Origin: Fundidesulfovibrio terrae | GTDB lineage: Bacteria > Desulfobacterota > Desulfovibrionia > Desulfovibrionales > Desulfovibrionaceae | DNA length: 64,000 bases | Direction of reading: 5' to 3' | NCBI RefSeq assembly: GCF_022808915.1 | Contig: NZ_JAKZFS010000002.1 | Span: forward strand, 124,001 to 188,000 | Part shown: positions 57,034 to 64,000 of the stretch, in pieces | Layout: the number at the start of each line of letters is the position of its first letter | How positions within the stretch are numbered: the stretch's first letter is position 1 | Translations under genes and position numbers: made by a program | The notes under the pieces: generated by a model | Told to the model about the DNA's origin: nothing | Databases searched by the model: none | Seen by the model: the letters and a program-made list of their open reading frames with translations, nothing else

Positions 57034-57792
57034 CTAGTTCACGACCCGGTAGTTCATGACTTCCGGCCGGTGGAAATAGAACTCGACCCTGCGGTTGAGC
57101 GCCTCGCCCTCCGGGGTCAGGGCCGGGGAGAGGGGGAGGGTGTCGGAGTAGGCGATCGCCCGGATGCGGTTGGGGGCAATGGCCTTGTCCGCGAGCACGG
57201 CCCGGACAACCGCCCCGGCGCGCGCTCCCGAGAGCTCCCAGTTGGAGGGGAATGTCCCGGCCTTGTACTCGCCTGGAACGGCGTGGCCGCGCACCACCAG
57301 GTACAGGTTGAACGTCTTGAGTACATCCTGGACTTCCTTGACCACCTTGACGGCCTGCGGGGACAGTTCGGCGGAACCCGCCTTGAACATGAGGTCGTTG
57401 TTGACCCGCAGGAGCACCCCGGTGTCGTCGGAGCTGACTCCGGAGCTCTGCTTGAGGAAGGGGTCCTCGGTGATGATCTTCTTGAAGCGCATGGCGATGG
57501 CGTACCGGGCCGCCTGCTCCTCGGAGAGCTGCTGCTGCTTCACGTCGGGGCTGCCCATGAGGGCGGAGTTGGGGTCGGGGCTGACCTTGCCCAGGTTGGT
57601 GTCGGCCTTGAAGTAGGTCTCCAGGGCTTTCTGCACGTCCTTGGGCACGATGTTGAGTATCCACATGAGCAGGAAGAAGGCCATCATGGCCGTCACGAAG
57701 TCGGCGTAGGCCACCTTCCAGCTGCCGCCGTGGAATTTGGGAGGACGCCGGGAGCTCGCGCGGATGGGGGTGGATGCGTGTTTTGCGGCCAT
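57034..57792 (-). CDS. motB: Flagellar motor stator protein MotB, copy 2 (unusual OmpA domain)
   Basis: Second MotB, 252 residues. One membrane helix with ion-binding Asp31 (WKVAYADFVTAMMAFFLLMWIL) is intact. The OmpA-like domain (about 110-245) reads LYLVVRGHAVPGEYKAG where MotB1 has IEGHTDAYTYAG, so the TD of the peptidoglycan-binding GHTD motif is missing; NWELSGARAGAVVRA and LNRRVEFYFH are kept. Start ATG 57792. It follows motA2 directly on the same strand (stop and start four bases apart) and precedes the hybrid kinase, so all may share a transcript. Confidence 0.92.
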   Translation of the reverse strand: MAAKHASTPIRASSRRPPKFHGGSWKVAYADFVTAMMAFFLLMWILNIVPKDVQKALETYFKADTNLGKVSPDPNSALMGSPDVKQQQLSEEQAARYAIAMRFKKIITEDPFLKQSSGVSSDDTGVLLRVNNDLMFKAGSAELSPQAVKVVKEVQDVLKTFNLYLVVRGHAVPGEYKAGTFPSNWELSGARAGAVVRAVLADKAIAPNRIRAIAYSDTLPLSPALTPEGEALNRRVEFYFHRPEVMNYRVVN

Positions 57793-57795
57793 GGT

Positions 57796-58641
57796 CTAAC
57801 CCCGGATCATGCGCTCCATCTCTTCGAAGGTGGGGCGGTAGAAGTCCGGCACGGAGCGGCGGCCGAATTCCAGGGCGATCATGGGGGTGGCCCCGTGGGC
57901 CGTGCCGGAGATGGTGGCCCGGATGACGCCGAAGAACGCCTCGCGTTCCTGGGAGCGGTTTTCCAGCTTGGTGGCCATGGGGCCCACGAACCCGTAGCAC
58001 ATGAGCACGCCCAGGAACGTGCCCACCAGGGCCGCGCCGATGGAGTGGCCCAGCTCGTCGGGCGGGGCGGTGATCTTCTGCATGGTGAGCACCACGCCCA
58101 GCACCGCCGCCACGATGCCCAGGCCCGGCAGGGACTCGGCCACCTTGGAGATGTTGTGGGCCGGAAGCGAGGCCAGCGTGTGCATGGACTCCATGTCCGC
58201 ATGCATGATGCCCTCGATCTCGGCGGGCTCGCCCGTGACCAGGTACACCCGGAAGGTGTCGCAGATGAAGCGCACCACCTGGGAGTCGTCGCGGATGCGC
58301 CGATGGGTGGAGAAGATGGCGCTGGACTCGGGGTGCTCGATGTCGTTCTCCACGCTGGCCAGACCCTCGCGCCGGATCTTGATGAGCAGGCGGGCCAGCA
58401 GGCTCAAGACTTCCAGGTAGTCGTCGCGGCCGTAGTGCTTGCCTGAGAACACGTCGCCCAGGTGACTCAGCAACAGCGACAGGGTGGTCTTGGTGGAGGC
58501 GATGAGCAGCGACCCCAGGGCCGCTCCGCCGATGACCAGTATCTCCGCCGGCTGCAGGAGCACGCCGAACTTGCCCCCCGCCACCCAGTAGCCGCCGGCC
58601 ACGCAGCACACGACCACCAGGATTCCAAGAATAGCCGTCAT
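57796..58641 (-). CDS. motA: Flagellar motor stator protein MotA, copy 2
   Basis: Second MotA, 281 residues, four membrane segments. LLQPAEILVIGGAALGSLLI, RREGLASVENDIEHPES, GLGIVAAVLGVVLTMQ, HSIGAALVGTFLGVLMCYGFVGP and RRSVPDFYRPTFEEMERM match copy 1 closely in layout. The start ATG 58641 overlaps the stop of the PilZ-like gene (ATGA), so the two are coupled; the frame is open further upstream but that part has no family similarity. Confidence 0.94.
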   Translation of the reverse strand: MTAILGILVVVCCVAGGYWVAGGKFGVLLQPAEILVIGGAALGSLLIASTKTTLSLLLSHLGDVFSGKHYGRDDYLEVLSLLARLLIKIRREGLASVENDIEHPESSAIFSTHRRIRDDSQVVRFICDTFRVYLVTGEPAEIEGIMHADMESMHTLASLPAHNISKVAESLPGLGIVAAVLGVVLTMQKITAPPDELGHSIGAALVGTFLGVLMCYGFVGPMATKLENRSQEREAFFGVIRATISGTAHGATPMIALEFGRRSVPDFYRPTFEEMERMIRG

Positions 58642-59237
58642 GATTGCTCCTCGCCCCCCTGGCACGGATTGGTCAGGGCGGTCTCAATCTCGGTGAGCAG
58701 GTTGTCCATGTCCAGTCCGCCGCAGGGGCGTCCGGGCGCGATGGCCACCCCCCGGGAGATGTTGTCGCACCAGTGGGCCAGGGCGGAGACGCCGCAGGCT
58801 TGTGCGTCCAGGAAATCCAGGGACTTCTCCAGCCGCGAGCCCACCGCGAAGCGCACGAAACGTGATCCCAGAAACAGCGCGCCGTTTTTCTCGGCCACCC
58901 GGACGAGATCGTTATAGGTGAACACCGAGAGCACCCCGTAGGGGTCGTCGGCCGAGGGATCCCAGAGCTGGAGGTAGCTGAAACAGGCCTTGGCCGACAG
59001 AAGCTTGTCGATGGCCTCCTGGGGGATGGAGGCCAGCAGGCCGAAACCCCGGATGGACAGGTCGGACAGGACCATGCGCCCGGAGCCCAGCCGCGAGGAC
59101 AGCAGGTGCGGCCGGCCAAGCTCCTCGGCCGACAGGCGCACGTAGTTCTTGCAGGGACAGAACCAGACCGCGATCTCCCTGACGTAGGAGCCGGGGACTT
59201 CAACCCTGTAGTCAGCCCGTCTGTTCGATGACTCCAC
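58638..59237 (-). CDS. PilZ-like protein coupled to the second stator
   Basis: Product of about 199 residues. An early RRADYRVEVPG and later LSDLSIRGFGLL correspond to the RxxxR and (D/N)xSxxG motifs of PilZ, the c-di-GMP receptor domain, although the match is loose. The second half (about 100-199) has FSYLQLWDPSADDPYGVLSV and a Cys/Gly-rich end. The GTG at 59237 with GGGAG seven bases before is preferred. The longer alternative from ATG 59393 adds 52 residues of low-quality sequence and would overlap the divergent gene. Translationally coupled to motA2, so a brake or modifier of stator function is a fair guess. Confidence 0.6.
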   Translation of the reverse strand: MESSNRRADYRVEVPGSYVREIAVWFCPCKNYVRLSAEELGRPHLLSSRLGSGRMVLSDLSIRGFGLLASIPQEAIDKLLSAKACFSYLQLWDPSADDPYGVLSVFTYNDLVRVAEKNGALFLGSRFVRFAVGSRLEKSLDFLDAQACGVSALAHWCDNISRGVAIAPGRPCGGLDMDNLLTEIETALTNPCQGGEEQS

Positions 59238-59382: not shown

Positions 59383-61470
59383 ATGCCCCACATGCCCCAC
59401 GACCCGTCATCGCCGCTCGCCCCGCCTGCGCAGTCCGCCGCCCGGGACCTGTTGCCACTGGCCAGGGCGCTGGCCGCCAGCGAGGCCCTCGCCAGCCTCG
59501 TGCTGGACCGTTCCGGGCGCGTGCTCTCGGCCAGCCCCGGCGCTGCGTCGCTCTTTGGCCTGCCGGGGCCGCCCCCGCCCGGTCAGCCCGCCGTGGAGCT
59601 TCTGCCCGGCCAAAGCCGGGCGAGCTTCCTGGAGCTCCTGCGCGTCGCGCAGGAGCTCGGCGAAGCCCGCACCGCGCTTCTGCGCCTGGGCGGCACCGAC
59701 GACCAGCCCCGCATGGCCGCCGCCTCCATGCTGCCGGTGCCCGGCGGGGAACCGGGCGAGGACGCGCCCGCCCTGGCCTTCCTGGCCCGCGACATCACCG
59801 GCGAGCACGAGCAGACCGAACGCCTGCGGCGCGGCACTCTGGAGGTCATCCGGCTCAACGCCGAGTTGCGCACCATGTCCGTGTCCAGGGAGCTCGCCCT
59901 GCAATCCCTGGAGGAGCTTTCCGGCAGGCTCAAGGGGGTGCTGGAGGCCGCTTCCCGGGTGGTCATCGTGGCCATCAGCCAAAGCGGGATCATCACCATG
60001 TTCAACCCCGGCGCGGCCAACCTGCTGGGGTTCGCCGCCGCCGAGATGGAAGGGCTGGAAACCCCCCTGGCCTTCCTGGACGAAGAGGAGCTTTCGGCGC
60101 GCGGCAAGGCGCTCGGCTTGGCCGACGGCCGGACCTACGCCGGGGTAGGGGTGGTCATGGCCCTGGCCCGGTCAGGGCGCAGGGATTCCGGCGAATGGAC
60201 CCTGGTCCGCAAGGACGGCGGCCGTTTCGCGGCGGAGCTGGCCCTGTCGGCCATAGAGGGCCCACACGGGGTGGAGGGCTACTTGATCGTGGGCGTGGAC
60301 GTGTCCGGGCGCAAGCAGGCCGAGGAGGCCATGCGCGAGCGGGAAGCCCGGCTGCGGGCCATCCTGGACGGGGCCGCCGACGGCATCATCACGGTGGAGC
60401 GGGGCGGGCGCATCGAAACCCTGAACCGCGCCGCAGAGGCCATGTTCGGCTACACAAGCGCCGAGATGGCGGGTCGCTCCCTGGACCTGATCGCTCCCGC
60501 GGCCCTGAACGCGCCTCCGCCTCGCGCGGGCGCGTCCGCCCGGGAGGTCATGGGGCTCAGGCAGGACGGGACGGGTTTCCCCATGGAACTCTCCATGAGC
60601 ACGGTGGATCTGCCCTCCAGGACCATATCCATCTGCATCGTGCGCGACATCACCGCCCGGCGCAAGGCCGAGGAGGCGCAGCGGCTTTTCACCAGGCGCC
60701 TCGCCGAACAGCAGGCGTCGCTTGAGCGCGACCTCAAGGCCGCGGCCGAGATCCAGAAGAGCCTCCTGCCCAAGGACCTGGCCCCGGATTCCCGCTACGA
60801 GGCCCGGTGGCTCTTCGAGCCCAGCGCTACCATCGGCGGGGACATCTTCAACATCCTCACCCTGGGGCCGGACCACATCGGGGCCTACATGCTCGACGTG
60901 AGCGGGCACGGGGTGCCCTCGGCGCTGGTGGCGGCGGCCGCCGCCCAGGCCCTGCAGTTCCATTCTCGCGCCGGGTACGGGCCCGACAAGGTGCTGGCCG
61001 CGCTGGACGCGGAGTTTCCCCTCACCCGTTTCGACCGCTACTTCTCCATGTTCTACTGCATCGCCGATCTGGAGGCGGGCTCCATCAGCTATTCCAACGC
61101 CGGGCACCCCCCGCCGCTTTTGGTCCGGGCCTCGGGAGGCGTCGAGGAACTGGACGCGGGAGGCACGGTGGTGGGCCTGGGAGGGCTGCTGCCCTTCGAA
61201 ATCGGACTGGTCGAAGTCCGACCCGGGGACATGCTGGCTGTCTACACCGACGGCCTGACGGAATTCGAGGACAGAAGGGGTCGCCGCTTCGGCGTCAAGC
61301 GCCTGCGGCGCTGGCTGGACGGATGCGCGGGACTGGGCGCGGACGAGGCTCTTTCCGGACTGCGCCGCGAGATCAAGGCTTTCGGGGGCAAGGCGAGTCC
61401 TCAGGACGACCTGTCCGTGCTGTTGGTAAGGTTCGGGAGGGGGATCCCCCCGGACGGGAGGAATCCATGA
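59383..61470 (+). CDS. PAS-PAS-PAS-SpoIIE/RsbU-type serine phosphatase
   Basis: Sensor phosphatase that dephosphorylates a STAS-type anti-sigma antagonist. In 695 residues: three PAS-like domains (about 30-140, 185-310 and 320-430), a coiled-coil linker (about 430-460), then a PP2C SpoIIE domain (about 470-690). The metal-binding Asp residues are in TIGGDIFN (Asp487), MLDVSGHGVPSAL (Asp505), YTDGLTEFED (Asp623) and SPQDDLSVLLV (Asp676). No membrane segment, so it senses a cytoplasmic signal. Start ATG 59383 or 59392. The stop overlaps the STAS gene start (ATGA). Confidence 0.93.
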   Translation: MPHMPHDPSSPLAPPAQSAARDLLPLARALAASEALASLVLDRSGRVLSASPGAASLFGLPGPPPPGQPAVELLPGQSRASFLELLRVAQELGEARTALLRLGGTDDQPRMAAASMLPVPGGEPGEDAPALAFLARDITGEHEQTERLRRGTLEVIRLNAELRTMSVSRELALQSLEELSGRLKGVLEAASRVVIVAISQSGIITMFNPGAANLLGFAAAEMEGLETPLAFLDEEELSARGKALGLADGRTYAGVGVVMALARSGRRDSGEWTLVRKDGGRFAAELALSAIEGPHGVEGYLIVGVDVSGRKQAEEAMREREARLRAILDGAADGIITVERGGRIETLNRAAEAMFGYTSAEMAGRSLDLIAPAALNAPPPRAGASAREVMGLRQDGTGFPMELSMSTVDLPSRTISICIVRDITARRKAEEAQRLFTRRLAEQQASLERDLKAAAEIQKSLLPKDLAPDSRYEARWLFEPSATIGGDIFNILTLGPDHIGAYMLDVSGHGVPSALVAAAAAQALQFHSRAGYGPDKVLAALDAEFPLTRFDRYFSMFYCIADLEAGSISYSNAGHPPPLLVRASGGVEELDAGGTVVGLGGLLPFEIGLVEVRPGDMLAVYTDGLTEFEDRRGRRFGVKRLRRWLDGCAGLGADEALSGLRREIKAFGGKASPQDDLSVLLVRFGRGIPPDGRNP

Positions 61471-61823
61471 CCGTGGTGGAGAGCGTGATCAACGGCGTGA
61501 CCGTGCTGGCCCCCCTGGGGACGCGCCTGGACGCCGGCGGATGCGGCGAATTCCGCCGGAGGCTCGAGCAGGTGCTGGCCCGGGGCCAGAAGTTCATCGC
61601 CCTGGATCTGGGCGCGGTGCGCTTCATGGACTCCACGGGCCTGGCGGTGATTTTGTCGGCGCTCCAGGGGCTGGCCGGGGAGGGGCGGATAGCCTGCGCC
61701 GGGGCGGGCGCCCAGGTCCGCAAGCTCTTCGAGGTGACCAGGCTGGACCAGGGTCTCGTGAGCCTTTACTCCTCGGTGGACCAGGCTGTGGACAGCCTCG
61801 CCCGAACCCAGGGGAGGCGGTGA
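61467..61823 (+). CDS. STAS-domain anti-sigma factor antagonist
   Basis: Product of 118 residues, a single STAS domain. The phosphorylatable serine is Ser56 in VRFMDSTGLAVILSAL, and the C-terminal helix RLDQGLVSLYSSVDQAVDSL fits RsbV/SpoIIAA. It should be the phosphatase's substrate and the anti-sigma kinase's partner. Start ATG 61467 with GGGAGGA in the preceding gene. Its TGA overlaps the next ATG (TGATG at 61821-61825). Confidence 0.93.
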   Translation: MTVVESVINGVTVLAPLGTRLDAGGCGEFRRRLEQVLARGQKFIALDLGAVRFMDSTGLAVILSALQGLAGEGRIACAGAGAQVRKLFEVTRLDQGLVSLYSSVDQAVDSLARTQGRR

Positions 61824-62251
61824 TGCCCAAAACCAGAACGCTTACGATGACCATCGACAGCTCGTTGGACAACGTCTCCCTGGTGGGCAACGCGGTGCGG
61901 GGCATCCTGGAGAACGAGCCTGGCCCCCGCCACGACATCCCGTTGGTGGAGCTGGCCGTGTGCGAGGCGGTGAACAACGCCATCATCCACGGCTACGACC
62001 AGAAGGAGGGTTTCCCTGTGGAGGTCTCCCTGAGCCTGGCCAAGGGGAAGCTCATCGTGACCGTGGCCGACCGAGGCCGGGGATTCTCCACCTTTCCCGA
62101 CGCCCTGCCCAAGGTCCCCGCCGGCGAGGACCTCCAGAACATGCCCCTGGGGGGCTGGGGACTTCGGATCATGGGCGAGGTGATGGAGCAGGTGCGCTAT
62201 TCCAGCGACGCGGGGCGCAACGAGCTGACCATGTCTCGGGCCTGGGCTTAA
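61823..62251 (+). CDS. Anti-sigma factor serine kinase, RsbW type
   Basis: HATPase_c kinase of 142 residues. The N-box is LAVCEAVNNAIIHGY, the G1 box is VADRGRGFSTF and the last box is GGWGLRIMGEVMEQVRYS. It phosphorylates the STAS protein and sequesters its target. No sigma factor gene is beside it, so the target may be a different protein, such as a motor or second-messenger component (inference). Start ATG 61823 is coupled to the STAS gene. Confidence 0.93.
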   Translation: MPKTRTLTMTIDSSLDNVSLVGNAVRGILENEPGPRHDIPLVELAVCEAVNNAIIHGYDQKEGFPVEVSLSLAKGKLIVTVADRGRGFSTFPDALPKVPAGEDLQNMPLGGWGLRIMGEVMEQVRYSSDAGRNELTMSRAWA

Positions 62252-62409
62252 GCCGGGGTTGCCAAGCCGGTCTCTTTGACATACTTTGCGCGCCACGGAC
62301 GCCTCCACCGGGGTATTTCGGACCGGTCTTTTCCCCTTTCACGCTCGAACATCACATCCTCCGCGACCGAAGCGGGGGTGGCCTCGGGGCCGTCGCGTCC
62401 GGCAGGGCC

Positions 62410-63849
62410 ATGATCCTAAGCACAGCCAAGCAGATCTCAGCGCGCAACGTGCTCGAGGGCCTGAGACAGGGCCTGAGCCGTTTTTCCGGACCCAGCCGGG
62501 CAGCCCTCATCATGGCCGAGACGCCTGACGCGCCTCTCGTGGTCCACGATCCGAGGCGGCTTCTGCGCGGCCACGAGCCCAAGCTGGCCAAGGTTTTCCT
62601 GGAATCGTCCGGGTGGCGGGACATGGCCCCGGACACCGCTGCCATGAAGCCCTTCGGCCAGGCCGCCTGGGCCGAAAAGCTCCACCTCACCGGGCTCATC
62701 TGCGCCGGTGGCTACTCCCAGCCGCTCTTCTACCAGATGTGGTTCACGGAACGGCACCCAAACATGTGCTCCACCGGGCCCACCGAACGCTGGCTCGAGC
62801 ACGCCGTCTGGCTGCTGGCCCACGACTACGCCTCCGAGGGCGCGTTCTTCACCTCCGCCTCCAAGCACGCCCTGGAGGCTTTCGAGCACCACGCCGTGCG
62901 CAACCACATTTTCGCCGAAATGAGCAAGGGCCTGGGCCGGCCCCCCCACATTCCGCTCTATCCCATCCTGGCGGCCGTGCTGGACATATCCACCACCCGC
63001 GAGGAGGGGGCGCGTCCCACCGGGCAGGTCATCTTCGTGGAACCGTCCGACGCGGACAACGTGCCCTGGCTGATCCGCTTCCCCGAGGTCGAGCGGCCAT
63101 ACCTGCACAATGCCAAGCACGTGCGCAAGCTCCTGTCGTGCGTGGAGAACTCCAGCCGAAGGCTGGTCAGCGACGGCGACAGGGTGCTCGGGGTGAGCGG
63201 TCCGGCCAACGGGCTCGCCAACCGGCTCACCGCCGACTTCCAGGACCGTTTCGGCTTCCTGCGCCTGGGGGGCAAGCCCGTGTGCAGCTTCGTGGACGGC
63301 GTCTACCAGTCCACCACGCGCAAGCCCAACCTGGTGGTGCTGGAGGAGGCCCTGCTGGAGGCCCAGGCCGGTCCCGATCAGGGGCACTCCCTGTTCCAGG
63401 TGGCCAGCGCCATCGTGGACGAGGCGCGCGTGGAAGGCTTCGGCTGCACCCTGGTGCTGGACCCCAAGGCCACCCATCCGGCCCTGGCCGGGCAGAGCGT
63501 CCACCCGTCCCTTTTCCTCGACGATCCGCTGCACCTGGACCTGGCCAAGTCCCTGGCCAAGCTCGACGGCGCGCTGCACCTCACCGGCGGCGGCGAGTTG
63601 CGCGCCTTCGCCTGCCTGCTGGACGGCCGGTCCGTGGAGTCCGAGGACCGCTCGCGCGGGGCGCGCTTCAACTCGGCCCTGCGGTTCACGGCCATGCACC
63701 CGGGCGTCATCGTTGTGGTGGTCTCGGCGGATTCCCCGGTGTTCATCTTCCAGGGAGGGCTCCAGCTCAACGCCATGTGCGATCTGCGCCAGGAGGCCGA
63801 CCTGGAGCTCGATCCCCCCACCCTCGAAAAATGGCTGAGCGAACAATGA
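62410..63849 (+). CDS. DisA_N-domain protein, diadenylate-cyclase-like, divergent motif
   Basis: Product of 479 residues. The C-terminal part (about 360-450) is a DAC/DisA_N fold: LAKLDGALHLTGGGELRAF carries DGA (386-388), the second block reads RGARFNSALRFT (416-427) where cyclases have RHR, and IVVVVSADSPVFIF ends the fold. The N-terminal 330 residues are unrecognised and could be one of the probable sensor domains described next to such DAC domains. Catalysis is therefore uncertain: it may make c-di-AMP, another nucleotide signal, or only bind. Start ATG 62410 is preferred because no family pattern appears in the frame before it; its Shine-Dalgarno is weak. 158 bases separate it from the anti-sigma kinase. 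It overlaps the next ATG by four bases. Confidence 0.75.
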   Translation: MILSTAKQISARNVLEGLRQGLSRFSGPSRAALIMAETPDAPLVVHDPRRLLRGHEPKLAKVFLESSGWRDMAPDTAAMKPFGQAAWAEKLHLTGLICAGGYSQPLFYQMWFTERHPNMCSTGPTERWLEHAVWLLAHDYASEGAFFTSASKHALEAFEHHAVRNHIFAEMSKGLGRPPHIPLYPILAAVLDISTTREEGARPTGQVIFVEPSDADNVPWLIRFPEVERPYLHNAKHVRKLLSCVENSSRRLVSDGDRVLGVSGPANGLANRLTADFQDRFGFLRLGGKPVCSFVDGVYQSTTRKPNLVVLEEALLEAQAGPDQGHSLFQVASAIVDEARVEGFGCTLVLDPKATHPALAGQSVHPSLFLDDPLHLDLAKSLAKLDGALHLTGGGELRAFACLLDGRSVESEDRSRGARFNSALRFTAMHPGVIVVVVSADSPVFIFQGGLQLNAMCDLRQEADLELDPPTLEKWLSEQ

Positions 63850-64000
63850 ACATGCGCGGCGCCTACGTCGTCTACCGCCGGACCCGCGACGGGCGGCTGC
63901 GCTGGGGCTTCAGGATTCCGGCCTGGCTGCCGGTGGCCCTCATGGCCCTCTCGGTTGCCGGGGCCATTCACCTGGCTTGGCGCCTGCCCGAGATCGCGGG
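63846..64000 (+). CDS. Membrane protein, N-terminal fragment cut by the window edge
   Basis: ATG 63846 overlaps the previous stop (ATGA), so it is coupled to the DisA_N gene. About 51 residues are visible: a basic start (MNMRGAYVVYRRTRDGRLRW), then a membrane helix (about 28-47, PVALMALSVAGAIHLAW). No family can be named from this part. Confidence 0.65.
   Translation, partial: MNMRGAYVVYRRTRDGRLRWGFRIPAWLPVALMALSVAGAIHLAWRLPEIA

What the first reader, a model, noticed from the sequence alone, without database searches (positions are those of the whole stretch)
59383..64000. Complete partner-switch module running into a DisA_N protein and a coupled membrane protein
A triple-PAS phosphatase, a STAS protein and an anti-sigma-type kinase are coupled by overlapping codons, but no sigma factor follows. 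Instead a DisA_N protein comes next, coupled by ATGA to a membrane protein cut by the edge. The partner switch may control a nucleotide-signal enzyme or the nearby stators instead of transcription. I think this is the best candidate for an undescribed system in the window.
Basis: partly seen in the sequence, partly recalled or inferred. Interest (0 to 1): 0.6.

Follow-up and report, generated by a model that had tools for sequence, protein, structure and literature searches.

The report
Unusual DAC protein beside partner switch
A common three-gene protein switch happens to sit next to a separate gene pair made of a cell-wall-cutting enzyme and an unusual relative of the enzymes that make the signal molecule c-di-AMP, and that relative carries the same altered active-site motif as the relatives of an enzyme recently shown to help bacteria fight viruses.

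Summary
The genes are as described: triple-PAS SpoIIE phosphatase, STAS protein and RsbW-like kinase, joined by overlapping codons, no Sigma70_r2 gene on the contig. But the kinase is not coupled to the DisA_N gene: 158 nt separate them, holding a promoter-like block conserved in six genus members (Fundidesulfovibrio, inferred), three of which lack the switch. In 81 family loci the switch lies beside this gene in 3, so a five-gene system is not supported. The tighter unit is DisA_N plus its coupled partner, an M23 peptidoglycan hydrolase (7 of 81 loci, 6 of 6 in the genus). The DisA_N protein (DACND-DACNH-DAC) belongs to a Desulfobacterota family whose RHR motif, essential in a studied diadenylate cyclase, is replaced by RGAR[FY]NS (81 of 81). 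Its nearest NCBIfam relative is not DisA but the DAC of DS-2, a CBASS-like anti-phage system; plasmid DS-2 DACs carry the same altered motif. I read it as a DAC-fold nucleotide enzyme or sensor of a non-RHR class, co-expressed with a wall hydrolase. Related partner switches recur beside PilZ proteins, so the switch's likelier output is the neighbouring PilZ-like/MotAB genes.

The parts
59383..61470 (+). PAS-PAS-PAS-SpoIIE (PP2C) serine phosphatase, 695 aa
   Evidence: Pfam PAS regions at 39-142, about 196-308 and 323-425, SpoIIE 496-684 E 1.9e-42; motifs GGDIF, DVSGHG, PQDDLS
61467..61823 (+). STAS protein (anti-sigma-factor-antagonist type), 118 aa, with FMDSTG serine motif
   Evidence: Pfam STAS_2/STAS; best solved relatives are anti-sigma F factor antagonists; FMDSTG kept in 3 of 3 orthologues
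61823..62251 (+). RsbW/SpoIIAB-like serine kinase, 142 aa
   Evidence: HATPase_c_2 E 8.6e-23; RsbW and anti-sigma F factor in PDB at E 2e-7 to 3e-7; motifs taken as N, G1 and G2 boxes
62259..62287 (+). conserved promoter-like block TTGCCA-17-TACTTT upstream of the DAC gene
   Evidence: 137-152 nt before the ATG in 6 of 6 genus members, with or without the switch; best 34-mer block (five sequences, L088 dropped as near-identical to L084) scores 89 against a maximum of 80 in 60 block shuffles; not called by the stricter consensus scan
62410..63849 (+). DACND-DACNH-DAC protein, 479 aa, non-RHR DAC
   Evidence: Pfam; AF2 mean pLDDT 89.7; DAC fold Z 15.9, rmsd 2.6, 130 residues to CdaA 8c4n; NF053872 DS2_3_antiphage E 8.4e-18
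63565..63573 (+). DGA motif, residues 386-388
   Evidence: D and G in 81 of 81, A in 79 of 81
63658..63678 (+). GARFNSA, residues 417-423, at the place of canonical GTRHRAA
   Evidence: GAR[FY]NS in 81 of 81; aligned to GTRHRAA of S. aureus DacA 6gyw (a weak profile match, E 0.58) and of the genome's own CdaA-like protein; the fold alignment covers this region
63846..64000 (+). start of an M23 peptidase with an N-terminal hydrophobic stretch; continues to G000:C2:188730 (L003:9847-10731)
   Evidence: PF01551 E 5.4e-33; H[KN]GxDI and HLHYE motifs in 7 of 7 orthologues
58638..59237 (-). PilZ-like protein, divergent neighbour (ORF opens at 59393; likely start GTG at 59237)
   Evidence: RxxxR and DxSxxG motifs in 6 of 6; no Pfam or NCBIfam match
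57796..58665 (-). MotA-type stator protein
   Evidence: MotA_N, MotA_ExbB
57034..57792 (-). MotB-type stator protein
   Evidence: MotB_plug, OmpA

Best explanation
Two independent units stand side by side. Unit 1 is a partner switch (triple-PAS PP2C phosphatase, STAS, RsbW-like kinase). It is present in only half of the genus loci compared and so is dispensable to its neighbours; its likeliest output, inferred only, is the neighbouring PilZ-like/MotAB genes. Unit 2 is a DAC-M23 gene pair with its own promoter-like block. Its DAC protein belongs to a non-RHR class of DAC-fold proteins (DACNH-type; RG[AS]R[FY]NS instead of GTRHR) that also contains the CBASS-linked anti-phage DAC of DS-2. Proposed mechanism: the DACND and DACNH domains sense a cytoplasmic state; the DAC domain binds a nucleotide and either makes a cyclic-dinucleotide signal with an altered active site or works as a nucleotide sensor; co-expression with a membrane-anchored M23 hydrolase ties this to peptidoglycan turnover in this genus. 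Shown: gene order, predicted fold, motif exchange, class membership by sequence, conserved block, neighbour counts. Inferred: nucleotide chemistry, sensing, the link to the wall, and the output of the switch.
For: The switch is beside the DAC gene in 3 of 81 loci and in 3 of 6 of the genus; DAC-M23 in 6 of 6 of the genus plus L092. Conserved block upstream of the DAC gene in both kinds of genome. DAC/M23 overlap, or lie at most a few nt apart, in 7 of 7 (M23 starts inferred). Fold: CdaA/DisA structures Z 13.0-15.9. GAR[FY]NS 81 of 81, 23 of 23. NF053872 DS2_3_antiphage matches 55 of 55 alignment members, DisA 1 of 55. Plasmid DS2_3 members over the cut-off (804 and 712 bits against 630) lie next to a patatin phospholipase and the DS2_2 nucleotidyltransferase and carry RGSRYNSG / RGARYNSA. 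Profile match of the family to the Citrobacter DS-2 DAC: 97.7%, E 1.7e-12.
Against: The genus sample is six loci. In the DAC tree with outgroups the module-bearing L091 branches first and the module-free lineages nest inside (supports 66-89), but the outgroup L092 lacks the module too, so one gain with two losses costs as much as two gains with one loss; the concatenated tree is weak (nodes 48, 74). The promoter-like block fails a stricter consensus scan and read-through from the kinase is not excluded. The link to DS-2 is distant (17% identity over 422 positions), the NF053872 score is far below its cut-off (64 against 630 bits), and the N-terminal domain differs (DACND against DACNG). No nucleotide product or binding is shown. 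M23 is adjacent in only 7 of 81 loci. The PilZ-like assignment rests on motifs only; its AF2 model failed (pLDDT 54).
Confidence: 0.68

Rival explanations
1. One five-gene system: the kinase/STAS pair binds or phosphorylates the DAC protein and so controls a nucleotide signal, with the M23 hydrolase as output.
For: Same strand and order in 3 genomes, with orthologous modules (kinase 70% and 64% identical to the window's). Partner-switch-type proteins linked to a nucleotide cyclase have precedent.
Against: Absent in 3 of 6 genus loci that keep DAC-M23 and MotAB-PilZ-like, and in 78 of 81 family loci; 158-188 nt gap with a conserved promoter-like block.
Confidence: 0.1
2. The partner switch acts on the divergent PilZ-like protein and the MotAB stators (motility), analogous to the PilZ-linked switches elsewhere in the family. 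(Compatible with the best explanation.)
For: Related modules have a PilZ-domain gene directly beside the kinase in 6 of 7 non-orthologous cases, from 4 genera. A PilZ query finds 16 of 198 family genomes and all 16, the query's own locus included, have STAS and/or kinase within about 1.5 kb; nine of them had not been seen before. The window's PilZ-like gene is the divergent neighbour of the phosphatase and carries RxxxR...DxSxxG in 6 of 6.
Against: MotB-MotA-PilZ-like persists without the switch in 3 of 6 genus loci. The window's PilZ-like protein is not recognised by the Pfam PilZ model and is not the same protein as the one in those modules (no match to that query in the window's genome). 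In nine further phylum genomes the PilZ query finds no kinase neighbour. No interaction data.
Confidence: 0.4
3. The kinase is a classical anti-sigma factor whose sigma factor lies elsewhere in the genome. (Compatible with the best explanation for unit 2.)
For: Best solved relatives are RsbW and anti-sigma F factor; NCBIfam spIIAB/RsbW models match below their cut-offs; 8 Sigma70_r2 matches exist in the genome.
Against: None of them lies on the window's contig.
Confidence: 0.25
4. The DAC protein is a canonical c-di-AMP synthase and the motif exchange is neutral.
For: The DAC fold and the DGA motif are kept.
Against: RHR to AAA abolished ATP binding and activity in M. tuberculosis DacA (PMC3328451, abstract and passages); the exchange to GAR[FY]NS is in 81 of 81 family loci and shared with DS-2 DACs; the genome has a separate GTRHR-bearing CdaA-like protein.
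Confidence: 0.2
5. The DAC domain is catalytically dead and only binds a nucleotide.
For: Loss of His and Arg of RHR; loss of the SEE(T/R)G segment in the DACND branch (mostly SxDRP instead).
Against: Many invariant polar residues remain. In DS-2, whose DACs share the motif class, mutating two predicted catalytic residues eliminated defence (PMC13092281 passage; which residues was not seen), so the site matters there.
Confidence: 0.3

Closest known systems
DS-2 anti-phage system, third protein (NCBIfam NF053872 DS2_3_antiphage; DAC of a CBASS-like system; PMC13092281, passages seen)
   Same: DACNH + DAC domains, RG[AS]R[FY]NS in place of GTRHR, LDG between the two motifs
   Different: N-terminal DACNG instead of DACND; the DS-2 members seen lie beside a patatin phospholipase and a nucleotidyltransferase on plasmids, whereas the window's family shows one DACND match in 81 of 83 genomes (two more split between pieces) and no recurring specific neighbour
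CdaA / DisA diadenylate cyclases
   Same: DAC fold (Z up to 15.9), DGA motif
   Different: no RHR; 12-20% identity in the fold alignments; extra DACND and DACNH domains
RsbU-RsbV-RsbW / SpoIIE-SpoIIAA-SpoIIAB partner switches
   Same: PP2C phosphatase, STAS with DSTG serine, HATPase_c_2 kinase, overlapping codons
   Different: no Sigma70_r2 gene on the contig
HsbA-HsbD and SiaC-SiaD of Pseudomonas (PMC5085249 title and passages; PMC8457831 abstract; further detail recalled)
   Same: partner-switch-type proteins without an adjacent sigma factor, linked to a nucleotide cyclase or to motility
   Different: there the cyclase is a diguanylate cyclase with experimental links; here the neighbouring cyclase-like gene is not a conserved partner
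DACND/DACNH domain architectures (Galperin 2023, 'All DACs in a row', known here only from recall and as reference 54)
   Same: Pfam domain names and the general architecture (recalled)
   Different: paper not held, so whether it notes the motif exchange is unknown

Membership tests
RsbU/V/W partner switch | PP2C (SpoIIE) phosphatase with sensor | tested here: met
   SpoIIE E 1.9e-42 and three PAS regions
RsbU/V/W partner switch | STAS protein with phosphorylatable Ser | tested here: met
   FMDSTG, 3 of 3 orthologues; phosphorylation itself not tested
RsbU/V/W partner switch | RsbW/SpoIIAB-type kinase with N, G1 and G2 boxes | tested here: met
   (box names recalled)
RsbU/V/W partner switch | cognate sigma factor encoded nearby | tested here: not met
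   0 of 8 Sigma70_r2 matches on contig C2
Diadenylate cyclase (CdaA/DisA) | DAC fold | tested here: met
   predicted model; Z 15.9, rmsd 2.6, 130 aligned to 8c4n
Diadenylate cyclase (CdaA/DisA) | DGA motif | tested here: met
   79 of 81 DGA, 81 of 81 DG
Diadenylate cyclase (CdaA/DisA) | RHR motif | tested here: not met
   GAR[FY]NS in 81 of 81
Diadenylate cyclase (CdaA/DisA) | c-di-AMP synthesis from ATP | not testable with these tools
   needs an enzyme assay
DS-2 third protein (NF053872 equivalog) | curated score cut-off 630 bits | tested here: not met
   64 bits, residues 190-444 only: a relative, not a member
DS-2 third protein (NF053872 equivalog) | DACNH-DAC with RG[AS]R[FY]NS | tested here: met
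DS-2 third protein (NF053872 equivalog) | CBASS genes adjacent | tested here: inconclusive
   none seen by eye among the window gene's neighbours; in 29 representative loci no specific neighbour family recurs widely; CBASS models were not scanned locus by locus
M23 peptidase | HxxxD and HxH zinc ligands | tested here: met
   7 of 7; PF01551
PilZ domain (divergent neighbour) | RxxxR and [DN]xSxxG | tested here: met
   6 of 6
PilZ domain (divergent neighbour) | Pfam PilZ match or PilZ fold | tested here: inconclusive
   no Pfam match at E 0.1 and not among the genome's PilZ matches; AF2 pLDDT 54

The most novel reading that the evidence does not exclude
DACNH-type DACs (RG[AS]R[FY]NS, no RHR) are a second class of DAC-fold enzymes that make a nucleotide signal other than, or by a route different from, canonical c-di-AMP. 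The Desulfobacterota DACND branch is a vertically inherited chromosomal version of the enzyme that mobile elements use beside CBASS, and in Fundidesulfovibrio its output is tied to a co-translated peptidoglycan hydrolase, so that envelope or phage stress could trigger wall remodelling or self-lysis.
Probability: 0.22. Interest if true: 0.78.

Novelty: new variant of a known kind. Interest (0 to 1): 0.48.

Why it matters
The proposed five-gene system dissolves, but a more specific question replaces it. A large family of DAC proteins in Desulfobacterota, which I could find named only by its domains, shares an altered active-site motif with the relatives of an experimentally validated anti-phage DAC. 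If this class makes a different nucleotide or uses different chemistry, c-di-AMP cannot be assumed from a DAC domain match, and the Desulfobacterota branch offers a model outside mobile elements for the DS-2 enzyme. Separately, partner switches in this family recur beside PilZ and exopolysaccharide-type genes, which gives a concrete place to test non-sigma outputs.

Tried and rejected
Five-gene conservation: rejected on 81 loci. In the same call L072 has a weak STAS/kinase pair (32 and 31 bits) about 4 kb from the DAC gene on the other strand, and 11 loci outside the genus have weak phosphatase-like hits (25-113 bits) without STAS or kinase; none was counted as the module.

Conserved neighbour of the DAC gene: in 29 representative loci (at most two per genus, 19 genera, 6 kb either side) the wide clusters were the DAC gene itself in sense, antisense and shifted frames; outside it, two mixed-strand kinase/PAS-like clusters reached 14 and 6 genera and the rest at most 5. 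In 100 loci of the wider set, some of them the same organism twice, the widest cluster covered 24 loci (mixed strands, kinase-like) and the next 13.

Sigma70-type scan of 62100-62450: no promoter called at its threshold, no terminator. AF2 of the PilZ-like protein failed (mean pLDDT 54), so no fold search was made with it. N-terminal DACND region against PDB: only Z about 7 matches (PBP3, Mon1-Ccz1 and others), within what the tool says unrelated models give. Sequence search of A1 against PDB chains: one match, at E 0.58. PADLOC library: no match for the four proteins scanned. Phage records: no match for the window DAC or for the prophage-like relative L347. The DAC-only tree placed the single CdaA outgroup at a 17% node inside the DS-2 branch on a very long branch, so it says nothing on rooting.

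Literature: searches for the domain names, for DAC with Desulfovibrio or Deltaproteobacteria, for the RHR motif, and for partner switch with PilZ or c-di-GMP. No paper on the DACND family or on a partner switch-PilZ pair was found in that open-access library by those terms. Galperin 2023 was not held and is recalled.

Full report
WHAT IS THERE. The window is G000:C2:124001-188000 of a 3.9-Mb genome. Its genus is, by inference, Fundidesulfovibrio: L241 (F. agrisoli SG106) lies on a contig of the same length, 103,611 bases, as the contig of same-genus genome G009 that holds L084. Domains: three PAS regions + SpoIIE; STAS; HATPase_c_2; DACND + DACNH + DAC.

THE FIVE-GENE ORDER IS NOT A UNIT. The DACND domain occurs in 83 of 199 genomes drawn from the family. 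I fetched about 9 kb on either side for 80 of them plus the window's own locus; two genomes with matches split into pieces (G077, G082) were left out, and some stretches are cut by contig ends. Phosphatase, STAS and kinase orthologues lie next to the DAC gene in 3 of 81 loci (L003, L085, L091), all in the window's genus; the other three genus loci (L083, L084, L088) have MotB-MotA-PilZ-like directly upstream of the DAC gene and no switch. A seventh genus genome (G118, 66% complete) has no DACND match. The kinase orthologues are 70% and 64% identical to the window's; the next best in the genus is 40% and lies elsewhere. A DAC tree with outgroups puts the module-bearing L091 first and the module-free lineages inside (supports 66-89). 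As the outgroup L092 also lacks the module, one gain with two losses and two gains with one loss cost the same; the concatenated tree is weak (nodes 48, 74). Either way the switch comes and goes while the neighbours on both sides stay.

OWN PROMOTER-LIKE BLOCK. Upstream of the DAC gene all six genus members share a GGTTGC-type word with a TA-starting hexamer 17 nt after the TTGCCA-like hexamer, 137-152 nt before the ATG; in the window TTGCCA 62259-62264 and TACTTT 62282-62287. Over five sequences (L088 dropped as near-identical to L084) it is the best conserved 34-mer in the 220 nt before the ATG (score 89; 60 block shuffles: mean 74, maximum 80). A stricter consensus scan does not call it, so I call it promoter-like.

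THE DAC-M23 PAIR. M23 follows the DAC gene in 6 of 6 genus loci and in L092 (genus g31), with start and stop overlapping or a few nt apart, and in none of the other 74 loci at the threshold used. Zinc-ligand motifs are kept in 7 of 7.

THE DAC PROTEIN IS NOT CANONICAL. The AF2 model has mean pLDDT 89.7. Its C-terminal part matches CdaA and DisA structures (Z 13.0-15.9; 8c4n: Z 15.9, rmsd 2.6 over 130 residues), well above the next rows at Z 7.5 and below. DG is kept in 81 of 81 loci and DGA in 79 of 81; the RHR site reads GAR[FY]NS in 81 of 81 and in 23 of 23 matches of DACNH across the phylum, three of which are from genomes already counted. In 100 further or overlapping loci the motif is in all, but 80 of those came from a scan that used this motif as one of two patterns, so that count is biased. 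The placement against RHR comes from a weak profile match (6gyw, E 0.58), from the alignment with the genome's own CdaA-like protein, which has GTRHRAA, and is in line with the fold alignment. In M. tuberculosis DacA, RHR to AAA abolished ATP binding and activity (PMC3328451, abstract and passages).

NEAREST RELATIVE: DS-2. Against NCBIfam the protein matches one family, NF053872 'DS2_3_antiphage' (E 8.4e-18, residues 190-444; 64 bits against a cut-off of 630). All 55 members of alignment A1 match it; one of 55 matches DisA. DS-2 is a phospholipase, a cGAS and a DAC; mutating two predicted catalytic residues of the DAC eliminated defence, and 15 of 30 DAC homologues lay beside CBASS (PMC13092281, passages). 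I searched plasmid records with L347, a DS2_3-like protein (578 bits) that had itself been found by a motif pattern. Seven records matched. The Citrobacter (804 bits) and Gluconobacter (712 bits) proteins are over the cut-off, and each lies next to a patatin phospholipase and a DS2_2 nucleotidyltransferase; Dyadobacter scores 435 and one Priestia 241 bits; two other Priestia proteins were not scored. Their DAC domains read, in the order Citrobacter, Gluconobacter, Dyadobacter and three Priestia, RGSRYNSG, RGARYNSA, RGARYNSA, RGSRYNSA, RGARFNSA, RGARFNSA; none has RHR. The seventh, from Phycisphaera (395 bits), reads RGARLNAT, a variant. Three IMG/VR contigs also carry RGAR[FY]NSA but were found with that motif as a pattern. 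Profile comparison of A1 with the Citrobacter protein gives 97.7% probability, E 1.7e-12, aligning both motifs. The two branches are separated by a long branch (support 100 on DACNH + DAC, 96 on DAC alone), identity is about 17%, and the N-terminal domain differs (DACND against DACNG). So the window protein is a relative of, not a member of, DS2_3.

WHAT THE SWITCH MAY DO. No Sigma70_r2 gene lies on the contig (0 of 8 matches). Among the ten kinase matches at E 1e-15 or better in 198 family genomes, three are the orthologues; of the other seven, six, from four genera, have a PilZ-domain gene directly beside the kinase and one (L228) has none within the 1.5 kb seen. Seven such PilZ proteins, the six and the one of a second module in G106, match PF07238 at E 8e-7 to 2e-4: four over the cut-off, three just under. 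In reverse, that PilZ protein as query hits 16 of 198 family genomes, its own locus and six already seen included; kinase is within about 1.5 kb in 15, STAS in 15, one or the other in all 16, and a GH26-like gene in 14. In nine further phylum genomes phosphatase and/or STAS is near in 5, GH26/GT2 in 3, and a kinase in none. The window genome has 11 PilZ matches in all, so chance adjacency should be rare (inference). The window's own neighbour is a different, PilZ-like protein with MotAB; by analogy I favour it as the output, but it persists without the switch in three genomes.

VERDICT. The interpretation as one undescribed system is not supported. What is worth attention is the class of DAC-fold proteins without RHR that unites a Desulfobacterota family with the relatives of a validated anti-phage enzyme. 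Its chemistry is unknown; I give 0.22 to a different nucleotide signal tied to wall hydrolysis.

Noticed in passing
L217:2450-11780, L216, L324-L335: A recurring cassette in the window's family: GT2 glycosyltransferase, GH26-like hydrolase, PilZ-domain protein, and an RsbW-like kinase/STAS/PP2C partner switch; PilZ with STAS and/or kinase in 16 of 16 family loci, GH26 in 14 of 16. It looks like a partner switch wired to a c-di-GMP effector and exopolysaccharide synthesis.
   Followed up: partly
L350:3051-6725, L352:3046-6716: DS-2-like gene sets (patatin phospholipase, DS2_2 nucleotidyltransferase, DS2_3 DAC; in Gluconobacter the DAC is divergent) on a Citrobacter and a Gluconobacter plasmid; the Citrobacter DAC is annotated only as hypothetical protein.
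   Followed up: partly
L347, L348, L349: DS2_3-related DAC proteins on IMG/VR contigs, next to what look by eye like integrase or phage genes; on L348 a TIR-like gene also lies nearby by eye.
   Followed up: no
L353:1743-4732: On a Priestia megaterium plasmid a DACNH-DAC protein lies near a nucleotidyltransferase that matches CBASS_cyclase_b (below its cut-off) and SMODS, not DS2_2.
   Followed up: no
window:58638-59393 (-): The PilZ-like ORF as opened overlaps the phosphatase start on the other strand by 11 nt; a GTG at 59237 gives a likelier start and leaves room for divergent promoters.
   Followed up: partly
window:62428-62937: The DACND domain has a confident predicted fold but no clear solved relative in the whole-protein search (only Z about 7); it was not folded and searched alone.
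   Followed up: no
G000:C5:341720-342076 (-): The genome has a second, GTRHR-bearing CdaA-like DAC, so both DAC classes coexist.
   Followed up: partly
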